From contig CM055095.1 in NCBI GenBank assembly GCA_029204225.1, positions 50,042,841 through 50,106,840 on the forward strand: 64,000 bases of DNA. The letters run 5' to 3'. The DNA is from Diphasiastrum complanatum (Eukaryota; Streptophyta; Lycopodiopsida; Lycopodiales; Lycopodiaceae). The notes beneath the pieces were generated by a model. It worked only from the letters and a program-made list of their open reading frames with translations. It was not told where the DNA came from and ran no database searches. Position numbers and translations under genes: made by a program. How positions within the stretch are numbered: position 1 is the first letter of the stretch; every line of letters begins with the position of its first letter. Below are positions 13,528-62,928 of the stretch, in pieces.

Positions 13528-14784
13528 TCAAAAAAAGTGAGTACCAAGCTCAATCTTGTTCTTACTAGAACCAAGAGCATACTTTTGACAATACAATATC
13601 TTGCTTTCAAAAAGTATTGGAAACACATCTAAGTCAATAATGACAAGAAACATGTCCATACCATAAGCATCATACAAAACTAGTATAGCCTTTCTTGAAT
13701 TTTGAGATCCAAAAAATTCAATGAAGCAAGATAGCATTTCGAGCAAAGGAAGAGAAGCATATATGAATGTGTTGTAGTAGATACAACATGAAAGATGCCC
13801 CTCTTTGCCATGCAAGGTGAGCCATAAAGACTCGGCCATGCATCTTGAAGATCTTCTTGAAATCATATGAAGAAGAAACTCCTCCTCACACCTTGGCCCC
13901 ATCATAACTTGAATACCTTCAAAAAAGATAACTTGTGATGCTTCTTGAGAAGCCTTGATCTCGGCCACTTCCAAGATTGAATCTTCATGCAATGTGACAT
14001 CTCTATTCACAATCACTTTTGAAATAGAGAGTGTAAAGACACTAAAGGCCTCCTTGATGGATGAGTATCCAATCATGATCCATGAGCTTGGATCATCCTT
14101 CCTTCTTGTTTCCAAGGGAATATGTGCAAAGCAAGCACTACCAAGTTCACTAAGGTGATCAACCTTAGGCTTCATCTTGAATAAAACTTCATATGGTGCT
14201 ATTCCTTCAAGAGCTCCAATACTCCTCAAGGCTTTGATCTTCAATGAAAATTTCTTCTCAACATATGCTTTGAATAATAAGGAATAATCATACACCATAA
14301 TACTTGAAGAGAGAAGATATGTGCATCTTGTGTGATCATCCTCCTTTGAAATATTGGACATATAAGAAACATCAAGAGAGTTTGCACTCTCACTTGGATC
14401 CAATTTGTAGATGCCTTCAAATCTTGATCCATATGCAAAGATCTCACCATCCTTCTTGATCACACAATTGTCAATATTGAAATTGACATCAAAGCCACTA
14501 TCAAGAAGTTGGCCAACACTTAAGATGTTCTTTGTAAGCTTTGGGACAAAAAGAACATTGTTGAGAAAGAGATCTTTGGAAGATGCAAGCTTCAAGGGAA
14601 TAATCCCTACTCCTTCAATATTGTACTCATGCTTACTTGCAATGTATATGGTCTTCTTGACTCCATCATAAGGCATACTAGATGAAAAAAAGTGCTTGGA
14701 GCCACACATATGTGAAGATGCTCCACTATCAATATACCATGAGTCATCCTTGTTGAAGGTGGAAGAGGAGAAACTTGATGCCAT
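13528..14784 (-). pseudogene. Copia protease fused to integrase remnants by internal deletion
   Basis: Open for 418 codons. It begins just after the zinc knuckle. The retropepsin active site reads SWYIDSGASSHMC about 15 residues in, followed by the usual NNVLFVPKLTKNILSVGQL block. After about residue 165 the gag-pre-integrase region is missing. A stub of integrase follows (FKAYVEKKFSLKIKALRS, which normally leads into the second catalytic Asp), then directly PYEVLFKMKPKVDHL and a FAHIPLETRRK block from after the catalytic core. All catalytic integrase residues are lost, yet the frame is intact through the joins. The last 100 residues are unrelated internal sequence. It could yield gag-protease products but not an integrase. 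Confidence 0.8.
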
Positions 14785-15671
14785 AAGAGAGCCTTCTCCA
14801 TCTCTTGCAATATAGTCTTCTTTCTCATTGGTGATGTTGGCTTGATTGAGTTGATTCTTCTTCTTGAAGCAATTGGTGGCATAATGGCCTTTCTTGCCAC
14901 AATAAAAGCACTTGATCTTCTTCTTCTTGAGATTTGAATTAGAAGCATGAGAGGTATCCTCCTCCTCTCCATCTTGGTCTTTAGCTTTGTCATTAGAGAA
15001 GTGATGATGTTGCTTCTTACTCCTCTCTTTGTGCTTGGCAATAGAACTTTGCCATCATCATGATTGAGTGATAGCTTGTCCATCCTCAAGAGTTTGTACT
15101 CTTATCTTGATTCTTCAGAAATAAGAACACTTTGAAGGGCCTCCAAACTTGGTAGCTCCTCCTTAATGGCATAGGATTGGACAAGGTTGTCATATTCATC
15201 TCTCAAGCCATTGAGAATTACTTGGACTAGCTCACTTTGATTGATTGAGTCACCAATACATGCAAGCTCCCTATGAATATCCTTGATTCTCAAAACATAA
15301 CTAGATGCACTCTCATCACTCTTTTGACTACTTTGGAAGATTAGATTTCTAAGAGTGAGGAGCCTAGAGGTGTTCTTAGCCTCATATATGGACTTGAGAC
15401 AATCCCAAGCTTCCTTGGATGTAGAACAATCACCAATCTCCCTCAATATCTCATTAGAGACATTCATCTTAATGTAGTGGAGAGCCATCCTAGCTCTCTT
15501 CTTGTATTTTTGAACTTCTTGAAGGACTTGAGGCTCCTCCTCAATCCCAAGTACAATTTCCATCACATCTTGGAGTATCAAGATGGACTCCATCCTCAAC
15601 TTCCATATTGAATAATTGGAAGTAGACAATCTCTCACTTGGTTGCAACAAGTATGAACTCATTGAAGTCAT
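14785..15671 (-). pseudogene. Copia gag polyprotein with zinc knuckle
   Basis: The 189-codon segment 15,671-15,102 is a copia capsid (UBN2-type): it starts MTSMSSYLLQPSERLSTSNY, where the LxxxNYxxWKxxM motif is clear, and contains the SKEAWDCLKSIYE and LTLRNLIFQ blocks. A TAA at about 15,099 and a frameshift near 15,030 separate it from the nucleocapsid part, which holds the zinc knuckle CFYCGKKGHYATNC at about 14,860-14,910 in the same frame as the protease. Gag normally packages the element RNA in cytoplasmic particles. The start lies about 740 bases after the primer site. Confidence 0.85.
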
Positions 15672-16414
15672 GTAAAGTGGAGATAAATAAAAGTGATGAA
15701 CAAGAAATGTTGCTTCTTTCTCACTATAGGATCCAATAATGGTGTGCTACCATCTCCTATGCAAGATCTTGCAACAAACTGTGAGATGATTCTCACTAGC
15801 TATCTCAATCTCTCCAAAACTAGATCTATTTCACATCAAATGATGGAGAATGGGCAAAGCTAGGATCAAACACTCTTAGCACGTGTGAAATACACTAAGA
15901 AACCAAATTTGACTCAAATACAATGATATTACATGAAACAAAATGGCTAAGATCTCAAAACAATGCCTAGATCAGATATAGACGAGATTGGTAAGCATTC
16001 AACTGTGATTTTGGATCAAACAAGCAATCTCTTGACCAAACCAAATGTGTCCACCCAGGTCTAGTGCCCTGACTAACCCTCTTCAAAAGATTATAACTTT
16101 TGATTGGCTCAACCAAATGGAATGAAACTGATTGCATCAGAAACTAGACAAAAATAGCTTCAAAACAAGCTATCTAGCAAGATTTTTGGATCAAACATGA
16201 AAGAGAACTCCCAAACTGAAATTGGATGTTCCTCACAAGTGTCTGAGCACCTGATTCCGTACAGTACCATGTCAGACCCAATCAATGTCCTTTTGATCTC
16301 TTTTGATCCAAAATTGAACAAGATATCTAGGAAAATGGGCCTTGACAATTTCTAGCTCAAGATTGATGAATAGTTTTCACTCAAATGGATCAAAATGCAT
16401 GGTAACCTTAGGTA

Positions 16415-16427
16415 GGCTCTGATACCA
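16415..16427 (-). promoter_or_regulatory. Primer binding site (initiator tRNA-Met)
   Basis: The minus strand reads TGGTATCAGAGCC immediately after the LTR end, complementary to the 3' end of plant initiator tRNA-Met. It fixes the strand of the element. Confidence 0.9.
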
Positions 16428-30660: not shown

Positions 30661-30961
30661 ATAATATATTAATATAATTAATATTTAATATTTTTTGAAT
30701 TTTTTTTAAACCTAATCTACCCGCCCCCCTCGCTTCTTCTCTCCCAATTTTTTTCCAGCCATCGTTGCCCTGCCTTCGCTACTGGTTTTGCTGCCCTGCC
30801 TTCCTTGCCTTGCGTCTGATTTGCGTCGCCCTTCGCCCACAGACCGCCCTGCCTTGCATCTGATTTGCAAGAACCTGCCTTCGCCCATTTTCAGCGTCTC
30901 TCACACAGTGTACCCCGCTGTTTTTTTTTCCAACGTTTTGTCCTTAGTTTTCTCCATCGCA

Positions 30962-33900
30962 ATGGTGCAATCCGACCTTTCCGGTCTACGGGACGAGGTA
31001 GACATTGTCAGGTGGGTTGCCGACAAGGCCAACAAGACCGGTCAGAAGATCGTGCGCTGCCGATACTGTCTCATCAAGTTTGCTGCATCCCTCACTCGCC
31101 TTAAAGGCCATCTGCTCGGTGCACGCGCCAAAAATGGTGCCACCTTGAATGCTGCCCCTTGTGGCAGCATGACCGTCCCTGACAGGCAGCGACTGCTGGA
31201 CACCTACGGGTCGCGGCTCGTGGCAGGGGAGAACACCATTTCGGAAGGCATTTTCCGATTTTGCACCGCTCCTTATGTGGCTGACCTAGAGTTGCTGCCT
31301 GCTTGGCTGGCACGCACGAGGAGAGAGAGTGCATCCTCCTCCGGTCCCTTTGCCCCTCAGACAGTTCTGCCTCACGCACCCCCATCTTCTCAGATTCCGG
31401 TGGATCCTGTCCACTGCGATTCCACCACCACCCACTGTTGCTCGCACTCCACCAGTCTACGACTTTCTCATGGACTCTCCGCCACCCGAGCAGGCCCAGG
31501 ATGGTACTGGGCGGGCCTTCGAGGATGTGGAAGAGATCCCTTCTTCCTTCCCTTCCCATCCGGATGACCTCCTCAGCCAGCAGTTTTCGTACCCCATGCC
31601 AGATGTTGCCTCTCCACCAGTGCACCCCACCTATCCTGCTGCACCCATCCCTGCCAGTGCATCCCACTCTCCCCATTCCACGTCTACAGCCGATGCATCC
31701 ACCAGTGCCCAGCCTGTCGCGTCATCGTCCATTCCCGTCACGGTTGGTGCACTGTGCTGGAGGTCCACCACCCGTCGCCCACCAAGGAGAGCCCTCGTGC
31801 AGCAGACCATTCGCGGCGCGCATCAGCCGCACAAGGACAGAGAGGCCACACAGGCCGTGGCCAGTCTGATTTACGAGCTGAACCTGCCCTTTGCCATCAC
31901 CGACTCTGTGCCCTTCAGAAGGGCCTTCCGCCTTGCACAGTCTGTCAACCCTAGCTGGAGAATCCCTAGTTCAGAGGTTGTTCGCACACACATGCTGAGG
32001 GATAGGGTTGAGTCCTTGTCTAGAGAGATGGAGCCTCTGCGTCGGCACTAGGCCACTTACGGTTGCAGCATCATGTCCGATGGCTGGACTGATGTCAGGA
32101 GGAGGCCGATCCTCAACATACTGGTCTCCAGCTGCATGGGCACACAGTTTTTGAGGGCAGTGGATTGCAGCAGGGGGGGGAGAGTCATACCTGCAGAGTT
32201 CATGTTTGATGTCATCAGGTCTTCCATCCTAGCCATAGGCCCACAGCATGTCGTCACGGTGGTGACTGACAATGCCACGAACTGCATTCAGATGGGTGTA
32301 CTGCTAGAGGCCGAGTTCCCTCATATTGTTCATACCCCCTGTGCAGCCCACGGCATAGACCTTCTGATGGGGGACATTGGAGCACTTCCCTGGGTTAGAG
32401 CCATCGTCCAAGAGGCCCTCTTCCTGGTGACTTTTGCCACCAGAAAGAGGCGTGTTCTTGCCATGTTCCGGGTGTTCAGCCATCTGGACCTCCGTAAGCC
32501 AGCCCCCACGAGCTTTGCATTCGACTTGGTGGTCATCGACCGTTTGATCAGGTGCAAAGCCCAGCTTCTACAGATAGTTGCCAGTGATCTTTGGGGTGCC
32601 AGTACATTTCCGCACACTGAGGATGGGGAGCACTTTTCTTCCACGGTGAGGGGAGACCAGTTCTGGAGGGATGCACAAACATTGTCAGGACTGCTTCGAC
32701 CACTCTACATTGTGCTCCGCATGGCTGACAGCGAGGGGTCGACACTTGGACTGGTGTATGAGCTCATGGACCGGATTGGACAGTTCCTGCAGCTGCCCAT
32801 CTTGCAGCCAGAGAGGTAAGCGGTACAGTGTTGTAATTGACCTTTATCTTTTCAGTACTTGCTAGTTTGTTTTTCTGTCAATGTTAAGTTTTTTCGTAAT
32901 GCCCTAAACCACATGCCCCTCACCTACAGGATGACAGAGCTGAAGTTCATATGGGAGACGCGGTGGAACTACTTCCACATGAGTATCCACAGCGTTGCAC
33001 ACATGCTGCATCCCCTCTTCCTCTCTTCGACACAGATCGCAGACAGGGAGCTCGAGGCCGATTGGCTTCAGTACATTCACAGGGTGGGTCCACACATAGG
33101 TTTGGATCCTATCAGGCTCATGGAGGAGCTCGCTGCATTTCGTTTCGGCATGGGCACGTTCGGTCACCCGGCTGCTCAGGATCCAGAGAGGAGGCAGCTC
33201 CCCATTACCTGATGGACCATGTTCGGCAGCAACTATCCATCCATACAGCGTCTTGCACTGCGGGTCCTTTCACAGGTATGCATCTCATCTCATCCTCCCT
33301 TGCTGTGTTCCGTTGACGTTCCACCCGTGCACGTGTGCTGAACCTTTTCATTGCACGTACCACAGGACTGCGCTGCCTTCGTGTGTGAGCGTAATTGGAG
33401 CACATGGGCACTCATTCACACGAGGAGAAGGAACCGGCTGTCAGTGAGTCAGTTGGAGCGGTTGGTGTTCTGTAGCACCAACGCACGTCTCGCCAGGAGG
33501 CTTCCGACCATTACGAACGCATTGCAGGTGATAAGCTAATCTTTCATAGCATGTTGCTTGACTCCTGGTATGTTGGTTTCATTTCTTGATAAAGTTGTCT
33601 CTCTGACATGCAAATTTTAAACCTTGCAGATGAAGGTATCCGATTTGGAGTGCCAGGTTGACTTGCCTACGGACAGCACCCATCCCATGCCTGCAGATGA
33701 CCTGGGTACACAGTTGATGGCAGAGAGAGAGAGGGAGCTTGCCGAGATGAGAGAGAGAGAGCTTGGGCTTGAGCACATAGAGCCCCCATTGTATGAGGCA
33801 GACGAGCCAGTGTCAGAGGATGAGCATGATGAGGATGATCCCATTCGGGTTGTGTTTGCCAGTTCAGAGAGAGATGAGGCAGACCATACAGGTGCAGGGC

Positions 33901-48353: not shown

Positions 48354-48806
48354 TGTTAGAAATAAATGACTATGCTAAAGTTAAACCATAGGCTACTTTG
48401 ACCCAAAAGGTCGATATTTGTGTAACCGTGGGTATTTAGTTATTTAGGCCATTTTAAGTTTGTCTTAAGTTCAGTTGGACCCAATTTTGGTCATGTACTG
48501 ACTCGTGGGTCCTTAGGGGTCTTATTTTGTTTAGGGGCCCTATGTAGACTTTTGGGGGTGCCCGACATTTAGTAAGTGGTTAACCTTAGGGTTTGGTGGC
48601 ATTTGCCCACATCTAGGTAGAGTACTTAGATGCTCATTGTGTATTCCATTTTTACAGTTTGGCTAAGCATTGCTCTCCATTGCTCTTGTTGTTGTTTTCT
48701 CTCTCTCTCTCTCTCTTAGAGTTGGGCTCCCAGCCTCTTCTCTCTTGTTTTCTGTGGAGATTGATAGATAACTAGATCTTGGTGACTTGACTCTTGCTTT
48801 CCTACA
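48354..48806 (+). repeat. 5' LTR of the copia element
   Basis: Starts TGTTAGAAATAAATG and ends TTTCCTACA, 453 bases. Matches 56,777-57,213. A (CT)n run sits near 48,700. Confidence 0.9.
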
Positions 48807-48819
48807 TGGTATCAGAGCT
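48807..48819 (+). promoter_or_regulatory. Primer binding site (initiator tRNA-Met)
   Basis: TGGTATCAGAGCT directly after the LTR. Confidence 0.9.
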
Positions 48820-49520
48820 ATCAGATCTGCAACAAGCTTGTTTGTTGGCACCCTACCAGAAGAGGAGCTTCTCTGCTTTTGTTGTGAAATTTCAGCATCT
48901 TGTTGATCTTTTCAAGTGGAGTTTGGATCAGCTTTTTTTGTCTCTTTTCAGGTTGAAGGAGGGCGGCCATCAGAGATCTTGGAGGAGCAATTTTTGGCAC
49001 CCAAAAATCAGAATCTCAAATCTGATTTTTATGCAACCAGTTTTCAGCAAGTTTTGTTTGGAGGAGGGCGCCCAAAAATCTACTACTGTTTTTTGGTTGT
49101 GGTGTCTCTTTATCTTGTTGTTTTTTGTTTTCAGGTTTGCATTTGTGTAGGAGGGCGCCCAAAATTCAGCAAACCCTATTCAGGGTTAGGTCAACCTGTG
49201 GTTGGAAATTTGCAGATTCTTAGCAAGTAGTAGGGCGCTTTCAACAGCCCTATTGGAGTGTGTGTTGATCACACTATTTGGCCTCCTAATTGGGTTTCGG
49301 TGTAGGCTTCAATCGAAGCTAACCTAATTTTCAAGAAGCTGGTTGTTCTGTGCAGAAAGACAGCCATCTATCCATTATCTTTTGGGCACTTTGGTTTTAG
49401 ATTGAAAGACATCTTGTGCTCCTACTTTCAGCTCTTTGTTTGCTGCAAATTTTTGAGTAGATTTGGTTGTGGAAAGGCTCTCTTTCCTATCTACTACAAG
49501 CTGAAATTTTGCTGGAGGTA

Positions 49521-52500
49521 ATGGCTAAAGAATCGGAAGCTATCGGTTCTTTGTTTAGTGAAGATCGGTTGGATGGCACAAACTACTCCTTGTGGAGTTA
49601 CATGATGAAGAATCTTCTCATAGCAAAAGGGCTGTGGGATTTGGTCAATGGTGATGAGGAAAGGCCTCCATCTTTGGCACCTCCTACACTTCTTGTGGAT
49701 CATCATCATCAACATCATCTTCTACATCTTTGGAAGAACAAAAGAAGTGGGATAGAAGGGATGCACAAGCACATTCTATGGTTGCTCTTGCTGTGAAAAG
49801 ATCTATCTTACCTCATATTAGGTCTTGTAAGACATTCAAAAGTGCGTGGGATACACTTTATAATATGTATAGAGTCAAAAATTTAGCAAGAGTTTTTTTA
49901 GAAATCAACTTTCTTTGTTGAAGATGCAAGAAGGGGATCAAGTGACCAATCACTTGATGAAGATCAAGGATCTTCGTGAGGAGCTTCTCAATATTGATGA
50001 GATAATTGAGGATGCTCAATTTGTTTCCATTACTCTCAACTCATTACCTTCATCTTATCTTCCATTTGTTTCATCTTTGAGTATCTCTCTTAGGGGACAA
50101 CAACTCTTCTCTGATGAACTTGTTGGGTTGCTTCTTCCAGAGGAGCAAACGAGGCAAAACTTTGCGGGTGACACTCAACAAGATCAAGCTTTCTTCATGA
50201 AAGGCAAGGGCAAAGGCAAGTCAAAAGGAAAGGGGAAGCCTCCTTCCAATGAGCAAAAGCCCGTTGGAGGTCAAAATGTCAACACTCAAAAGAAGAAAGG
50301 GAAGTGCCATTATTGCAAAAGGTATGGGCACTTCATCAAGGATTGTAAGAAGAAGCTTGCGAAAGAGGAGAGTAAAGGAATTGATACTAGTGCTTCACTT
50401 GCTACTTTGGAGCAAGAGCTTGAAGCTAGTGGTGATCTCTTCAACCAAGACTATGCTTTTGTGTCTAATATTGCTTCTACTAGTACTGCTACATCTATGA
50501 GGAATTCAGATTCTGTTTTGCAAGTTGTTGATTTCCAGCCCAGTGAATGGGTGATTGATAGTGGTGCTACTCGTCATATGACTTCTCGCAAAGAAGCATT
50601 CACTAAATTAGTGAAAGTGCAAAATGGAAGTAAGGTACAATGATGTGCGGATGATGCATCTTATTCTATTCATAGAATTGGAATTGTAGCCATCATTTTG
50701 CCTAATGGTGAAGAAAAGTACATTAAGAATGTGCTTTATGTTCTGGGAATCAAGAAGAATCTTCTTTCGGTTTTCAACTATGTTGAAACAAGGACTAGTT
50801 GTTGAGTTCAAAGAAGATAAGTGTCTTGTCAAGGATCCTAAAATATCACTCTTGATTATTGTTTCGGAAACGATGCATGCTGGCTTATTCATTATGGATA
50901 CCTATGAGCGACGATTTTCCTCTACATGTCTTGTTGCTTCTACATCACAATCATTGGAGTTGGCTGAATTGTGGTACGCAAGGTTTGGGCATCTCAACTT
51001 TGCAAGTTTGAAGAAGCTGAAGACATTCCTACTATTGAGCAGCCGGAAGGGCATGTATGCGAGGGGTGCATACTTGGAAAGTTTCAAAGGAAACCTTTTC
51101 CAATTGATGGAACTATAAGGGTTCTTGATAAATTTGATTTGGTTCATAGTGATGTTTGTGGTCCAATGAGGACAGAATCCATTGGAAAGTGCATCTATTT
51201 TGTGACTTTTATTGATGACTTTTCCCGTTTTATATGGATCTATCCTATGAAGGCTAAATCGGAAGTTTTTCAACGTTTCAAAGATTTTCTAGCAATGGTG
51301 AAAAATCAGTTTGGGCATTCTTTGAAGACTTTACGCACCGATCGAGGAGGGGAATACATTAAGAATGTGTTCGGTGCATTTCTTCGAAAAAAGGGAATTC
51401 TACATCAAATGACAACTCTCAACAAAATGGTGTTGCCGAGCGAAAGAATCGCACACTTATGGAGATGGCCCGTTGCATGCTCAAAGCAAAGGGGCTACCT
51501 CACAAGTTTTGGGCTGAAGCAGTTATAACGGCAGCATACATAAGCAATCGTTGTCCTACTAAAGCATTGAAAGTATTAACTCCTAATGAAGTTTGGTATG
51601 GAAAGAAGCCTACAATCTCTCACTTTTGCATTTTTGGTTGTACGGCTTATGCTTTTGTTCCAAATAAACTTCGTACAAAGCTTGAGGATAAAGAAGTTAA
51701 ATGCATTTTTGTTGGCTATAGTAGTGAAAGCAAAGGCTATAGGCTGTTCAATTTGAGCACTAACAAGATTATTGTTAGTCGTGATGTGCATTTTGATGAA
51801 AAGAATTCATTGGATGTGGCCCCAACTCATATCTTGAAGGGGGACAGCCCACATAGTGTGAATGTTGAAGTTTTTCCAGATTTGGTACCATCTTCTATTG
51901 CTGGAGATAAGGGGCAGCAATCAACCAGTTTCGACCTATCCAACACCTCACAAGTTTAGAGCCTAATGTTCATCAAGAACCGCCTGTTGTTGCTCAAAAT
52001 CAGCCTGTAGGAACTGTTGGACAGCCCAAAACAGTCCCACAGTGGCTGTTGTCGACTTTGCGGGACATCAAAGTAAGTTCATTTTATGATGGAAAGACAC
52101 GTGCCTCTACAAAATCAGTTGACTATGCTGATTTTTCAGATTTTGCTCTTACATTTCATGGAGAAGTTGTAGAAGAACCTGTTTTCTATGAGCGGGCCAA
52201 GGGAGTAAAATGTTGGGAGGATGCGATGCAAGATGAATATGACTCACTTATGAAGAACCAGATTTGGGTTTTTGTTGATCTTCCTCATGGGAAGAAGGCA
52301 ATTGGTTCTAAATGGGTATACAAAATCAAGTATAAGGCAGATGGTACAAGGCAAGGCTCGTTGCCAAAGGCTATGCTCAACAAAAGACGATTGATTATGA
52401 GGAGACTTTTTCTCCTACTGCTCGGATGACTACCGTGAGGGTAGTAAACCCTTTGGCTGCCCACTTTGGTTGGCATTTGCGGCAACTTGACATAAAGACA

Positions 52501-53703
52501 GCATTCCTCAATGGTGATCTCAATGAGAAAGTGTACCTTCAACAACCTGCTGGTTTTTTGGTTGAAGGCCAAGAAGATAAAGTTTGTCTTCTCAAGAAGG
52601 CACTTTATGGACTGAAGCAAGCTCCGAGGATGTGGTATCAAAAGGTACATGCCTACTTTTGTGATCGAGGGTTTACTAATAGTCCTAGCAAATCTACTCT
52701 TTATGTCAAGCATACTTCAGATTATATCATCACTATTTTGCTTTATGTTGATGATATTACTATTACGGGAAGTAATGAGCAGCAGATTGATGCCGTAATA
52801 CTTGATCTTGGTATGGTTTTTGAAACCTCAGATTTAGGCCTATTGCACTTTTATCTTGGTTTTGAATTTGTACAAGAAGGGACTGCAATTTTCATCTCTC
52901 AAGAACGCTACATTGGGCAGATTTTGAAGTGGTTCAAGATGGAAGATTGCAAGCCGGTTGCTACACCTATAGAGATAGGTCTGAAATTAAGTAGTCAAGG
53001 TGATGGTGAATCATTTGACACTACTTCATATTGTCAAGCTATTGGTTGTCTCATTTACCTATGTAATTCAAGATTGGACATTTCTTATAGTGTCTCACTC
53101 ATGAGTCGATTCATGCATGCCCCCATGACATCACATTGGAAAGCGTTGAAGAGGATCTTTTGATATCTTCAAGGAACAAGAAGTCATGGACTGGTTTTTT
53201 TTGCTTGTGATGATGCATGTTTGGTTGGTTTTAGTGACTCGGATTGGGGTGGAGATCAAGACACTGGATGCTCTACAAGTGGACATTGCTTTTTCTATGG
53301 AAATTCTGCAATTTCTTGGTCAAGTAAAATGCAGCCCACTGTTGCTACTTCTTCTAGTGAGGCAGAATATAGAGCGATATTTTCAGCCACAACAGAGTAT
53401 TTATGGCCGAGATGACTACTTGTTGACATGAAGTTTGGCGAGCCCTCAGCCACTCTTATCTTGAGTGATAGTCAAAGTGCTATTGCCATTGCACGGAATC
53501 CTGTTTTTCATGCGAGGACGAAGCACATCGAGATCCATTATCACTTTGTTCGGGAGAGACTTCATGATGGCAACATTTTACTTGAATATTGTCCTACGAA
53601 GGATAATATTGCGGACCTCTTCACTAAGGCGTTGCCTAGAGTCAGATTTGAAGCTTTATGCAAAGCTTTAAATTTGATACCACGTGTTGGTTTTGTTACA
53701 TAG
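49521..53703 (+). pseudogene. Copia gag-pol polyprotein, frameshifted
   Basis: Gag starts MAKESEAIGSLFSEDRLDGT with NYSLWSYMMKNLL, and has a frame break near 49,690. Zinc knuckle CHYCKRYGHFIKDC near 50,310 and protease WVIDSGATRHMT near 50,550, then a TGA at 50,641. The integrase zinc-binding part ends CEGCILGK. The core shows VHSDVCGPM and LRTDRGGEYI, then frameshifts near 51,420 before the Glu region, resuming at MARCMLKAKGLPHKFWAEAV. RT: KCWEDAMQDEYDSLMKNQIW, LDIKTAFLNGDLNEKVYLQQ, KALYGLKQAPRMWY and the catalytic LLYVDDI. RNase H: FSDSDWGGDQDTGCSTSG, ATSSSEAEYRA, RTKHIEIHYHFVRE and a DLFTKAL end. All domains are present and in order, with about six frame breaks, so a recently dead copy. 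Confidence 0.93.
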
Positions 53704-53740
53704 TGAAGATTTCAATTTTTGCATTGTCATTTAAGGAGGT

Positions 53741-53873
53741 TGTTAGAAATAAATGACTATGTTAAAGTTAATCCATAGGTTACTTTGACCCAAAAGGTAG
53801 AGATTTGTGTAACCATGGGTATTTAGTTATATAGGTCATCTTAAGTTTGTCTTAAGTTCAGTTGGACCCAATT
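53741..53873 (+). repeat. Truncated 3' LTR
   Basis: Starts TGTTAGAAATAAATG right after the purine-rich AAGGAGGT. Follows the 5' LTR for about 133 bases and then breaks. Confidence 0.88.
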
Positions 53874-56677: not shown

Positions 56678-56776
56678 ACAATATCACACAATCACTCACA
56701 CACACACAATATCTCACACACACTCTCTCTTTCACACAACACACACAATGCACATTACAATCTCAATGCACACACA
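56640..56776. repeat. CA-rich microsatellite
   Basis: Imperfect (CA)n with TCA interruptions, ending at the copia LTR start. Confidence 0.9.
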
Positions 56777-58422
56777 TATTAGAAATAAATGACTATGCTA
56801 AAGTTAATCCATAGGTTACTTTGACCCAAAAGGTCGAGATTTGGGTAACCATGGGTATTTAGTTATTTAGGCCATCTTAAGTTTGTCTTAATTCAGTTGG
56901 ACCCAATTTTGGTCATGTACTGACTCGTGGGTCCTTAGGGGTCTACTTTTGTTTAGGGGCTCTATCTTGACTTTTGGGGGTGCCCTACATTTAGTAAGTA
57001 GTTAACCTTAGGGTTTGGTGGCATTTGGCCACATCTAGGTAGAGTACTTAGATGCTCATTGTGTATTCCATTTTTACAGTTTGGCTAAGCATTGCTCTCC
57101 ATTGCTCTTGTTGCCATTTTCTCTCTAGTTGGGCGCCCAGCCTCTTCTCTCTTGTTTCTTGTGGAGATTGATTGATAAGTAGATCTTGGTGACTTGACTC
57201 TTGCTTTCCTACATGGTATTAGAGCTACCGGATCTGCAACAAGCTTGTTTGTTGGCGCCCTACCGGAAGAGGAGCTTCTCTGCTTTTTGTTGTGAAATTT
57301 TAGCATCTTGCTAATCTTTTCAAGTGGAGTTTGGATCAGCTTTTTTGTGTCTTTTCAGGTTGAAGGAGGGCGGCCATCAGAGATCTTGGAGGAGCAATTT
57401 TTGGCACCCAAAAATCAGAATCTCAAATCTGATTTTTATGCAACCAGTTTTCAGCAAGTTTTGTTTGGAGGAGGGCGCCCAAAAATCTGCTACTGATTTT
57501 TGGTTGTGGTGTCTTCTTATCTTGTTGTTTTTTGTTTTCAGGTTTGCATTTGTGTAGGAGGGCACCCAAAATTCAGCAAACCCTATTCAGGGTTAGGTCA
57601 ACTTGTGGCTGGAAATTTGCAGATTCTCAGCAAGTAGTAGGGCGCTTTCAACAGCCGTATTGGAGTGTGTGTTGATCACACTATTTGGCTTCCTAATTGG
57701 GTTTCGGTGTAGGCTTCAATCGAAGCTAACCTAATTTTCAAGAAGTTGGTTTTTTTGTGCAGAAAGATAGCCATCTATCCATTATCTTTTGGGCACTTTG
57801 GTTGCAGATTAAAAGACATCTTGTGCTCCTACTTTCAGCTCTTTGTTTGCTGCAAATTTCTGAGTAGATTTGGTTGTGGAAAGGCTCTCTTTCCTATCTA
57901 CTACAAGCTGAAATTTTGTTGGAGGTAATGGCTAAAGAATCGGAAGCTATCGGTTCTTTGTTTAGTGAAGATCGGTTGGATGGCACACATTACTCCTTGT
58001 GGAGTTACATGATGAAGAATCTTCTCATAGCGAAAGGGCTGTGGGATTTGGTCAATGGTGATGAGGAAAGGCCTTCGTCTTTGGAACCTCCTACACCTCG
58101 TGGATCATCATCATCAACATCATCTTGGTCCTTAGGGGTCTAATTTTGTTTAGGGGCCCTATCTTGACTTTTGGAGGTGCCCTACATTTAGTAAGTGGTT
58201 AACCTTAGGGTTTGGTGGCATTTTGCCACATCCCGGTAGAGTACTTAGATGCTCATTGTGTATTCCATTTTTACAGTTTGGCTAAGCATTGCTCTCCATT
58301 GCTGTTGTTGCTGTTTCTCTCTCTCTCTCTCTTAGAGTTAGGTGCCCAGCCTCTTCTCTCTTGTTTCTTGTGGAGATTGATTGATAACTAGATCTTGGTG
58401 ACCTGACTCTTGCTTTCCTACA
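56777..58422 (+). mobile_element. Internally deleted copia element (relative of 48,354-53,873)
   Basis: LTR 56,777-57,213 (starting TATTAG instead of TGTTAG), primer site TGGTATTAGAGCT at 57,214-57,226, leader, gag start at 57,928, and then a jump at about 58,126 into the middle of the 3' LTR, which runs to TTTCCTACA at 58,422. About 4.7 kb of internal sequence and the 3' LTR's first part are missing compared with the full copy. The first 60 gag residues are intact (MAKESEAIGSLFSEDRLDGT). Confidence 0.9.
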
Positions 58423-58555
58423 GTCACATCATGCTCATTGCTTAACACTTCAAAGTTAAGAACTTTCACATATTGCAATTCACTTGTTTGATGTTGAATC
58501 TTGATTCTTAAACGTCTGATGTTGCCACTTGGATTGATGATTGTTAAAAGTTATG
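58423..58555. repeat. Copy of hAT-flanking sequence, inverted relative to 60,295-60,405
   Basis: Matches the reverse complement of 60,295-60,405 with a 28-base insertion. The match stops exactly at the TRIM, marking its left boundary. Confidence 0.8.
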
Positions 58556-58592
58556 AATTATCAATCCACACTCTAGAGAGAACTATCAAACA

Positions 58593-58665
58593 GGGCGGAT
58601 AGCTCAGTGGTAGAGCATCCCATCCGGTATGAGGGAGGTCCTGGGTTCGAATCCTAGTCTGTCCA
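58593..58665 (+). tRNA. tRNA-like sequence in the 5' LTR of the TRIM
   Basis: 73 nt foldable as a cloverleaf: acceptor GGGCGGA/TCTGTCC, D-stem GCTC/GAGC, T-stem CTGGG/CCTAG with loop TTCGAAT. A box TAGCTCAGTGG at 58,600-58,610 and B box GGTTCGAATCC at 58,644-58,654 match the Pol III consensus fully. The anticodon arm is abnormal: TCCC pairs with GGGA leaving an 11-nt loop, or a 5-bp stem with a mismatch and no U33 around CGG. So it is more likely a promoter-bearing relic than a decoding tRNA. Confidence 0.75.
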
Positions 58666-58694
58666 TCCATATTATGATTTATGGATTTCTAACA

Positions 58695-58712
58695 TGGTAT
58701 CGGAGCCAAGTT
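58695..58712 (+). promoter_or_regulatory. Primer binding site of the TRIM
   Basis: TGGTATCGGAGCCAAGTT matches the 18-base complement of initiator tRNA-Met at 16 positions. Confidence 0.9.
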
Positions 58713-58801
58713 AGACCTAACAGTTCATGGTGTCAAAGCCATGGTTAGGTGGCCCAAGTTGTGGGGCAGGTGACAACTAGGACCCCAACCAAGTGTGGCT
58801 T

Positions 58802-58810
58802 GAGGGGGGG
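58802..58810 (+). other. Polypurine tract of the TRIM
   Basis: GAGGGGGGG immediately before the TG of the 3' LTR. Confidence 0.85.
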
Positions 58811-58852
58811 TGTTGGAATATCAATCCACACTCTAGAGAGAACCATGAAACA

Positions 58853-58925
58853 GGGCGGATAGCTCAGTGGTAGAGCATCCCATCTGGTATGAGGGAGGTC
58901 CTGGGTTCGAATCCTAGTCTGTCCA
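58853..58925 (+). tRNA. tRNA-like sequence in the 3' LTR of the TRIM
   Basis: Identical to the 5' copy except C to T in the anticodon loop (CTGG instead of CCGG). A and B boxes are unchanged. The same abnormal anticodon arm. Confidence 0.75.
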
Positions 58926-58984
58926 TCCATATTATGATTTATGGATTTCTAACAACACACACATGTCACTCTCTCTCTCACACA

Positions 58985-59092
<108 letters not shown>

Positions 59093-59489: not shown

Positions 59490-59759
<270 letters not shown>

Positions 59760-60625: not shown

Positions 60626-61190
<565 letters not shown>

Positions 61191-62756: not shown

Positions 62757-62928
<172 letters not shown>

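What the first reader, a model, noticed from the sequence alone, without database searches (positions are those of the whole stretch)
58556..58954. A miniature LTR retrotransposon whose LTRs each carry a tRNA-type Pol III promoter
Seen: LTR direct repeats, initiator-Met primer site, purine tract, 116-base internal domain, and in both LTRs a 73-nt tRNA-like sequence with perfect A and B boxes but an abnormal anticodon arm. Known: Cassandra TRIMs carry 5S rRNA sequence in their LTRs and so a Pol III promoter. Inference: this is an independent, tRNA-based solution to the same problem, letting a tiny element be transcribed without a Pol II LTR promoter. I cannot check whether a tRNA-bearing TRIM family is already described for this lineage.
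Basis: partly seen in the sequence, partly recalled or inferred. Interest (0 to 1): 0.86.

Follow-up and report, generated by a model that had tools for sequence, protein, structure and literature searches.

The report
tRNA-promoter mini-retrotransposon (Helenus type)
A tiny jumping element whose end repeats each carry a tRNA-like promoter is real and present in many copies in this plant genome; the type was described in 2024, but here it is also found spliced together with a larger retrotransposon that probably moves it.

Summary
The element (LTRs 144 bp, internal 116 bp, initiator-Met-type PBS, G-rich PPT) belongs to a large dispersed family: 519 exact LTR|internal junctions, 1,528 exact A-box 18-mers, controls 0. 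Of 31 two-LTR copies with complete ends, 18 have exact 5-bp target duplications (0.9% with shuffled flanks). All 40 tRNA-like loci examined lie in TRIM LTRs. Rfam scores both window copies as tRNA. As a class this is not new: Kojima 2024 (PMC10886601) named tRNA-bearing TRIMs 'Helenus', with one plant, Selaginella. This is a further plant member; the genome holds a second family (LTR 153, internal 73) sharing the tRNA-Thr-like module but not the LTR flanks. Beyond the finding: the TRIM forms reciprocal composites with a Copia retrotransposon that also lies in the window (48354-53873). Exact junctions genome-wide: LTRx|int1 16 and LTR1|intX 15, against 519 and 441 native. Of seven such composites tried, the four readable at both ends have perfect 5-bp TSDs. 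That points to this Copia as partner and to cDNA exchange at the PBS. Pol III transcription is inferred, not shown.

The parts
58551..58694 (+). 5' LTR of the TRIM; first few bases eroded, clean alignment from 58554
58593..58665 (+). tRNA-Thr-like sequence in the 5' LTR (A box 58600-58610, B box 58644-58654)
   Evidence: 49.8 bits
58695..58710 (+). primer-binding site TGGTATCGGAGCCAAG, initiator-Met type; family norm TGGTATCAGAGCCAAG
58695..58810 (+). internal domain (116 bp), non-coding
58802..58810 (+). polypurine tract GAGGGGGGG
58811..58954 (+). 3' LTR, 144 bp, TG...CA
58853..58925 (+). tRNA-Thr-like sequence in the 3' LTR (A box 58860-58870, B box 58904-58914)
   Evidence: 52.0 bits
48354..53873 (+). 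Copia-type LTR retrotransposon (5' LTR 48354-48806, PBS 48807, gag/integrase/RT pieces, 3' LTR from 53741 cut at 53873): member of the family with which the TRIM forms composite elements
58127..58422 (+). partial LTR of the same Copia family, ending 128 bp upstream of the TRIM

Best explanation
This is a non-autonomous miniature LTR retrotransposon of the Helenus type. Shown: two LTRs with a tRNA-Thr-derived A/B-box module, iMet-type PBS, PPT, TG...CA ends, 5-bp TSDs, hundreds of dispersed copies, same-family tandem arrays, and composite copies fused at the PBS to a Copia element and flanked as one unit by a single 5-bp TSD. Inferred: Pol III starts just upstream of the A box in the 5' LTR and reads through the internal domain and the 3' LTR. 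Family 1 mostly has no T4 run of its own, so it should stop at the first T run in the flank; family 2 has a T4 at the end of its LTR. The RNA enters the particles of a Copia family, is primed by tRNA-iMet, copied and integrated by the Copia enzymes. Plus-strand strong-stop DNA (LTR plus PBS) sometimes lands on the PBS end of another cDNA in the same particle, giving tandem TRIMs and the reciprocal TRIM-Copia composites.
For: Structure. Copy number. TSDs: (family 1: 18 of 31 two-LTR copies with complete ends exact, 1 more by a one-base shift; family 2: 9 of 12, i.e. 7 of 10 after merging two duplicated loci). tRNA module inside LTRs: 20 of 20 and 20 of 20. tRNA module 82% alike between two families (z 12.6) whose LTR flanks hardly align (z 2.6 and 1.4). 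Nearest of a panel of 25 genomic tRNA genes: tRNA-Thr(GGT), 69%. Composites: junction counts 519/16/15/441 with controls 0; TSDs GACTG, ATATA, TATCT, ATTGC; Copia identity by Pfam gag, rve, RVT_2.
Against: No transcript data. Within families the tRNA-like part is no more conserved than the rest of the LTR; non-CpG divergence is 0.0245 against 0.0113 in family 1 and 0.0142 against 0.0089 in family 2. The lack of T4 in family 1 is not beyond chance (71% of Markov sequences lack it), and family 2 has a T4 in 31 of 32 LTR copies, which in the 5' LTR would hinder full-length Pol III transcripts unless read through. Complete-ended single LTRs of family 1 show an exact TSD in only 1 of 23 (many are ends of arrays or composites). 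Six further int1-selected loci join the TRIM to other sequences at the PBS (L010, L011, L019, L020, L031, L034), so this Copia family need not be the only partner.
Confidence: 0.75

Rival explanations
1. An ordinary Pol II-transcribed TRIM; the tRNA-like part is a captured SINE or tRNA passenger without promoter role.
For: No excess conservation of the tRNA-like part within families; a T4 in the family-2 LTR.
Against: The module is the one LTR segment clearly shared by two families with otherwise barely alignable LTRs; Rfam tRNA score above gathering at 29 places, in 19 of 20 loci (none in L082).
Confidence: 0.2
2. The tRNA-like part serves packaging, priming or RNA stability (tRNA mimicry), not transcription.
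For: The whole cloverleaf length is kept, not only the A and B boxes.
Against: Anticodon arm degenerate and predicted isotype variable (23 predictions in 15 of 20 loci, six isotypes); Kojima reports no complementarity between LTR tRNA and PBS in known Helenus (PMC10886601).
Confidence: 0.08
3. A tandem duplication of a degenerate tRNA gene with chance PBS and PPT.
For: Same-family tandem arrays exist (7 of 89 groups have 3-4 LTRs).
Against: Dispersed copies with TSDs, PBS, PPT and TG...CA ends.
Confidence: 0.01

Closest known systems
Helenus (Kojima 2024, PMC10886601; read: outline, text parts 1-4 of 6, figure and table section)
   Same: TRIM mostly under 1 kb, tRNA-like sequence with A and B boxes in both LTRs, PBS and PPT, 5-bp TSDs in plants and fungi, Thr-type modules in some, tandem arrays noted for one fish family, apparent Copia link in fungi.
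   Different: Only plant reported there is Selaginella moellendorffii (LTR 120, internal 85). Here LTR 144 + internal 116 and LTR 153 + internal 73; composites with the presumed partner. Homology to Helenus-1_SMo not tested, as the supplement could not be read.
Cassandra TRIMs (PMC7215508, passages read)
   Same: Pol III-type promoter in the LTR, iMet-type PBS, tandem LTR-internal arrays.
   Different: 5S rRNA module, against a tRNA module here; Cassandra is 565 to 860 bp according to PMC10886601, against 404 and 379 bp here.
TRIMs in general, incl. tandemly arrayed TRIMs (PMC4717578, passages read)
   Same: Size, 5-bp TSDs, L3I2 arrays; related larger element found for only 11 of 289 subfamilies there, by sequence likeness.
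   Different: No tRNA module reported ('tRNA' does not occur in the held main text). Partner here is inferred from composite junctions, without LTR likeness.
Dasheng/RIRE2 chimeras in rice (recalled; one search gave listings only)
   Same: Chimeric copies of a non-autonomous element and its autonomous partner taken as a sign of co-packaging.
   Different: Gypsy pair with long elements (recalled).

Membership tests
TRIM | two LTRs, PBS, PPT, under 1 kb, no coding | tested here: met
   404 bp in intact copies
TRIM | 5-bp TSD | tested here: met
   18 of 31 two-LTR copies exact against 0.9% with shuffled flanks; not seen at the window copy
Helenus | tRNA-like sequence inside both LTRs | tested here: met
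Helenus | A box and GGTTC of the B box kept | tested here: met
   family 1; family 2 keeps the A box and GGTTC, B box then reads GGTTCAATCCC or GGTTCAATTCC
Helenus | tRNA-like part not a working tRNA (the author's view for most families) | tested here: met
   variable predicted isotype; family 2 anticodon loop of 6 nt by hand reading; no functional test
Helenus | transcribed by Pol III (proposed by its author, not proven there) | not testable with these tools
   no RNA data
Helenus | sequence homology to the Selaginella family Helenus-1_SMo | not tested
   consensus is in a supplement that could not be read
Cassandra | 5S rRNA-derived LTR | tested here: not met
   of four matches with E up to 1, only the two tRNA matches reach a gathering score; no 5S
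SINE | tRNA head with tail, no LTRs, TPRT | tested here: not met
   0 of 40 tRNA-like loci without LTR context

The most novel reading that the evidence does not exclude
LTRs act as exchangeable cassettes. In particles of one Copia family, plus-strand strong-stop DNA is passed between TRIM and Copia cDNAs at the common PBS, making reciprocal composites (LTRx-int1-LTR1-intX-LTRx and LTR1-intX-LTRx-int1-LTR1) that integrate as units. This would explain tandem TRIM arrays, the spread of one tRNA promoter module into unrelated LTRs, and the occasional placing of a Copia internal region behind a Pol III-type LTR.
Probability: 0.55. Interest if true: 0.65.

Novelty: new member of a known kind. Interest (0 to 1): 0.5.

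Why it matters
It extends tRNA-promoter TRIMs to what seems a second plant genome, with two families of high copy number. It also gives junction-level evidence for which autonomous element mobilises a Pol III-type TRIM; Gao et al. found a related larger element for only 11 of 289 plant TRIM subfamilies (PMC4717578), and Kojima inferred partners of Helenus from PBS likeness and one internal match (PMC10886601). Counting foreign-LTR|internal junctions is a simple way to look for partners that share no LTR sequence. In annotation, such LTRs would be called tRNA genes, mostly Thr, in large numbers (14 of 23 ARAGORN predictions in 20 loci).

Tried and rejected
Tandem tRNA duplication and SINE: rejected. 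Avoidance of Pol III terminators in family 1: not beyond chance, and contradicted by family 2. Purifying selection on the tRNA-like part within families: no sign, trend opposite. Window Copia LTR at 58127-58422 as a composite with the TRIM: not so, because by eye the 128 bp between them do not resemble the internal domain, although a gapped alignment runs through them. Host: contigs C1-C23 are long (C23 42.5 Mb), C24 is 10.9 Mb, total 1.745 Gb. Two chlN-like fragments (E 3.1e-5 and 6.7e-5; a third match at 1e-3; none over the curated cut-off) hint at a non-flowering plant. I recall Diphasiastrum complanatum as fitting; this was not established and the literature searches did not settle it. Composites at L036, L022 and C20:27206: one end could not be read, so no TSD verdict. 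Segment comparison does not decide whether the composites arose once or several times.

Full report
Observation. The window copy consists of a 5' LTR (58551-58694), a 116-bp internal domain (58695-58810) that begins with TGGTATCGGAGCCAAG and ends with GAGGGGGGG, and a 144-bp 3' LTR (58811-58954) that begins TGTT and ends AACA. ARAGORN and Rfam see a full-length tRNA in each LTR (49.8 and 52.0 bits). The 5' boundary of this copy is eroded and its flanks show no TSD.

Family. A 399-base search of the 1.745-Gb genome gave 46 matches from 40 scored of 1,225 candidates; the internal domain alone gave 40 matches from 40 scored of 1,127 candidates. The exact 18-mer TAGCTCAGTGGTAGAGCA occurs 1,528 times (control 0), and the exact LTR1|int1 junction 519 times (control 0). 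Among 89 distinct family-1 LTR groups in the loci then held, 49 had two LTRs, 7 had three or four, and 33 had one; groups cut by locus ends or array ends are included, and groups with identical flanks were merged. Of 31 two-LTR groups with both ends complete, 18 had exact 5-bp TSDs, 1 by a one-base shift, 3 with one mismatch and 9 none. Of 5 complete-ended arrays of three or four LTRs, 3 had exact TSDs; of 23 complete-ended single LTRs, 1. Shuffled flanks of all 59 gave 0.9%. LTR pairs of two-LTR copies differ at 0-11 of about 144 sites.

Twenty loci, taken from the 40 best hits of the tRNA-like part alone, all carry LTR sequence beyond the tRNA-like part. Twenty loci, chosen from the listed first places of the A-box 18-mer on contig C1 with preference for single or oddly spaced ones, are all TRIM LTRs: 17 family 1 and 3 family 2. 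No tRNA-only copy was seen in these 40 of many more.

Second family. Family 2 has LTR 153 and internal 73 bp (379 bp in all), PBS TGGTATCAGAGCC, and 953 candidates at first look. Exact TSDs occur in 9 of 12 complete-ended two-LTR copies, 7 of 10 after merging two duplicated loci, and in 0 of 5 complete-ended single LTRs; its shuffled control, inflated by those duplicates, is 4.4%. Its tRNA-like part is 58/73 to 61/74 identical to family 1 (z 12.6 against shuffles), while 5' and 3' LTR flanks give z 2.6 and 1.4. Both modules are nearer to each other than to any of a panel of 25 genomic tRNA genes, which is not the full set; the best is tRNA-Thr(GGT), at 69% and 68%. A shared, old tRNA-Thr-type module in otherwise unrelated LTRs is the simplest reading, by common descent or repeated capture.

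Promoter. A and B boxes fit consensus (recalled) in family 1. In the 20 C1 loci Rfam finds 29 tRNA matches above gathering, in 19 of the 20 (none in L082), and ARAGORN predicts 23 tRNAs in 15 of them with Thr, Pro, Ser, Ala, Ile or Arg anticodons, so a working tRNA is unlikely. Against the promoter view: within families the tRNA-like part is not more conserved than the rest. Family-1 LTRs lack T4 in 50 of 52 copies and int1 in 42 of 42, but 71% of Markov sequences of that length lack it too. Family-2 LTRs hold a T4 in 31 of 32 copies, 26 of them at position 146. Pol III transcription is therefore an inference from anatomy and from Cassandra.

Composites. Thirty loci were selected only by int1 (L009 is the window copy and L015 the same place as L002). 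In 10 of the 30, int1 is preceded at the exact PBS by a sequence other than LTR1 that ends in CA or TA: L010, L011, L019, L020, L022, L028, L031, L034, L036, L037; L019 and L020 are near-identical. In L011, L019, L020, L031 and L034 this sequence is presumed, not proven, to be an LTR. L010 reads LTR2-int3-LTR3-int1-LTR1 and is flanked by AAGGT on both sides. In L022, L028, L036 and L037 it is 79-93% identical to the LTR of the Copia in this window (48354-48806), and in L036 and L037 the DNA after LTR1 is about 95% identical to the start of that Copia's internal region. Whole-genome exact junction counts are LTR1|int1 519, LTRx|int1 16, LTR1|intX 15, LTRx|intX 441, all controls 0. I tried to read both ends of seven composites with this Copia. 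Four succeeded, all with perfect TSDs: L037/L129 LTRx-int1-LTR1-intX-LTRx with GACTG, and L131/L028 (ATATA), L135/L136 (TATCT; 5' boundary placed by extending the alignment two bases) and L137/L138 (ATTGC), all LTR1-intX-LTRx-int1-LTR1. For L022, L036 and the C20 locus one end was not found. The middle of these composites was read only in part (first and last stretches of intX).

Mechanism (inference). Unequal crossing-over between LTRs cannot join LTRs without common sequence, and nested insertion would leave both TRIM LTRs and an inner TSD; neither fits. Transfer of plus-strand strong-stop DNA (LTR plus PBS) from one cDNA to the PBS end of another predicts these junctions, both reciprocal orders, similar junction numbers, and a single TSD; recombination between cDNAs at the dozen bases of common PBS is not excluded and would say the same about sharing a particle. 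This makes the Copia family (gag, integrase, RT by Pfam; the window copy is broken into several reading frames) the likely partner. The other joined sequences show that it may not be the only one.

Known and new. Kojima 2024 defines Helenus by the same features and names one plant species, Selaginella moellendorffii. In the held library, searches for 'TRIMp3' and for 'Helenus' with 'retrotransposon' found that paper, a 2026 meeting report naming Helenus (passages read) and papers that look unrelated by their listings; the listings of further searches showed no other tRNA-bearing plant TRIM. So the class is known; this is a new member, with a second family and the composites as additions. Chimeras of partner pairs are known from rice (Dasheng/RIRE2, recalled).

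Noticed in passing
L010:1020-1760: Mosaic of three TRIM families (LTR2-int3-LTR3-int1-LTR1) flanked by a perfect 5-bp TSD AAGGT; LTR3 (about 276 bp) has no evident tRNA-like part by eye.
   Followed up: partly
window 56776-58422: Further broken copies of the same Copia family (LTR plus 5' internal region, then a partial LTR) just upstream of the TRIM.
   Followed up: partly
window 13528-16427 (-): Second Copia-like element (gag and protease-like pieces by eye) with PBS TGGTATCAGAGCC at 16415; its LTR end is weakly (65%) like the joined sequence in L011.
   Followed up: no
L031: Composite with another joined sequence, lying in a large inverted duplication (98.6% over about 640 bp).
   Followed up: no
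L079, L080: Two fragments similar to plastid chlN, each with a stop and below the curated cut-off, hinting at a non-flowering plant host.
   Followed up: partly
window 30716-32819: Reading frames resembling a BED/hAT-type transposase by eye; not searched.
   Followed up: no
window 58969-59089, 59577-59756, 60696-60855, 62761-62912: Long pure or nearly pure CT/TC microsatellites.
   Followed up: no
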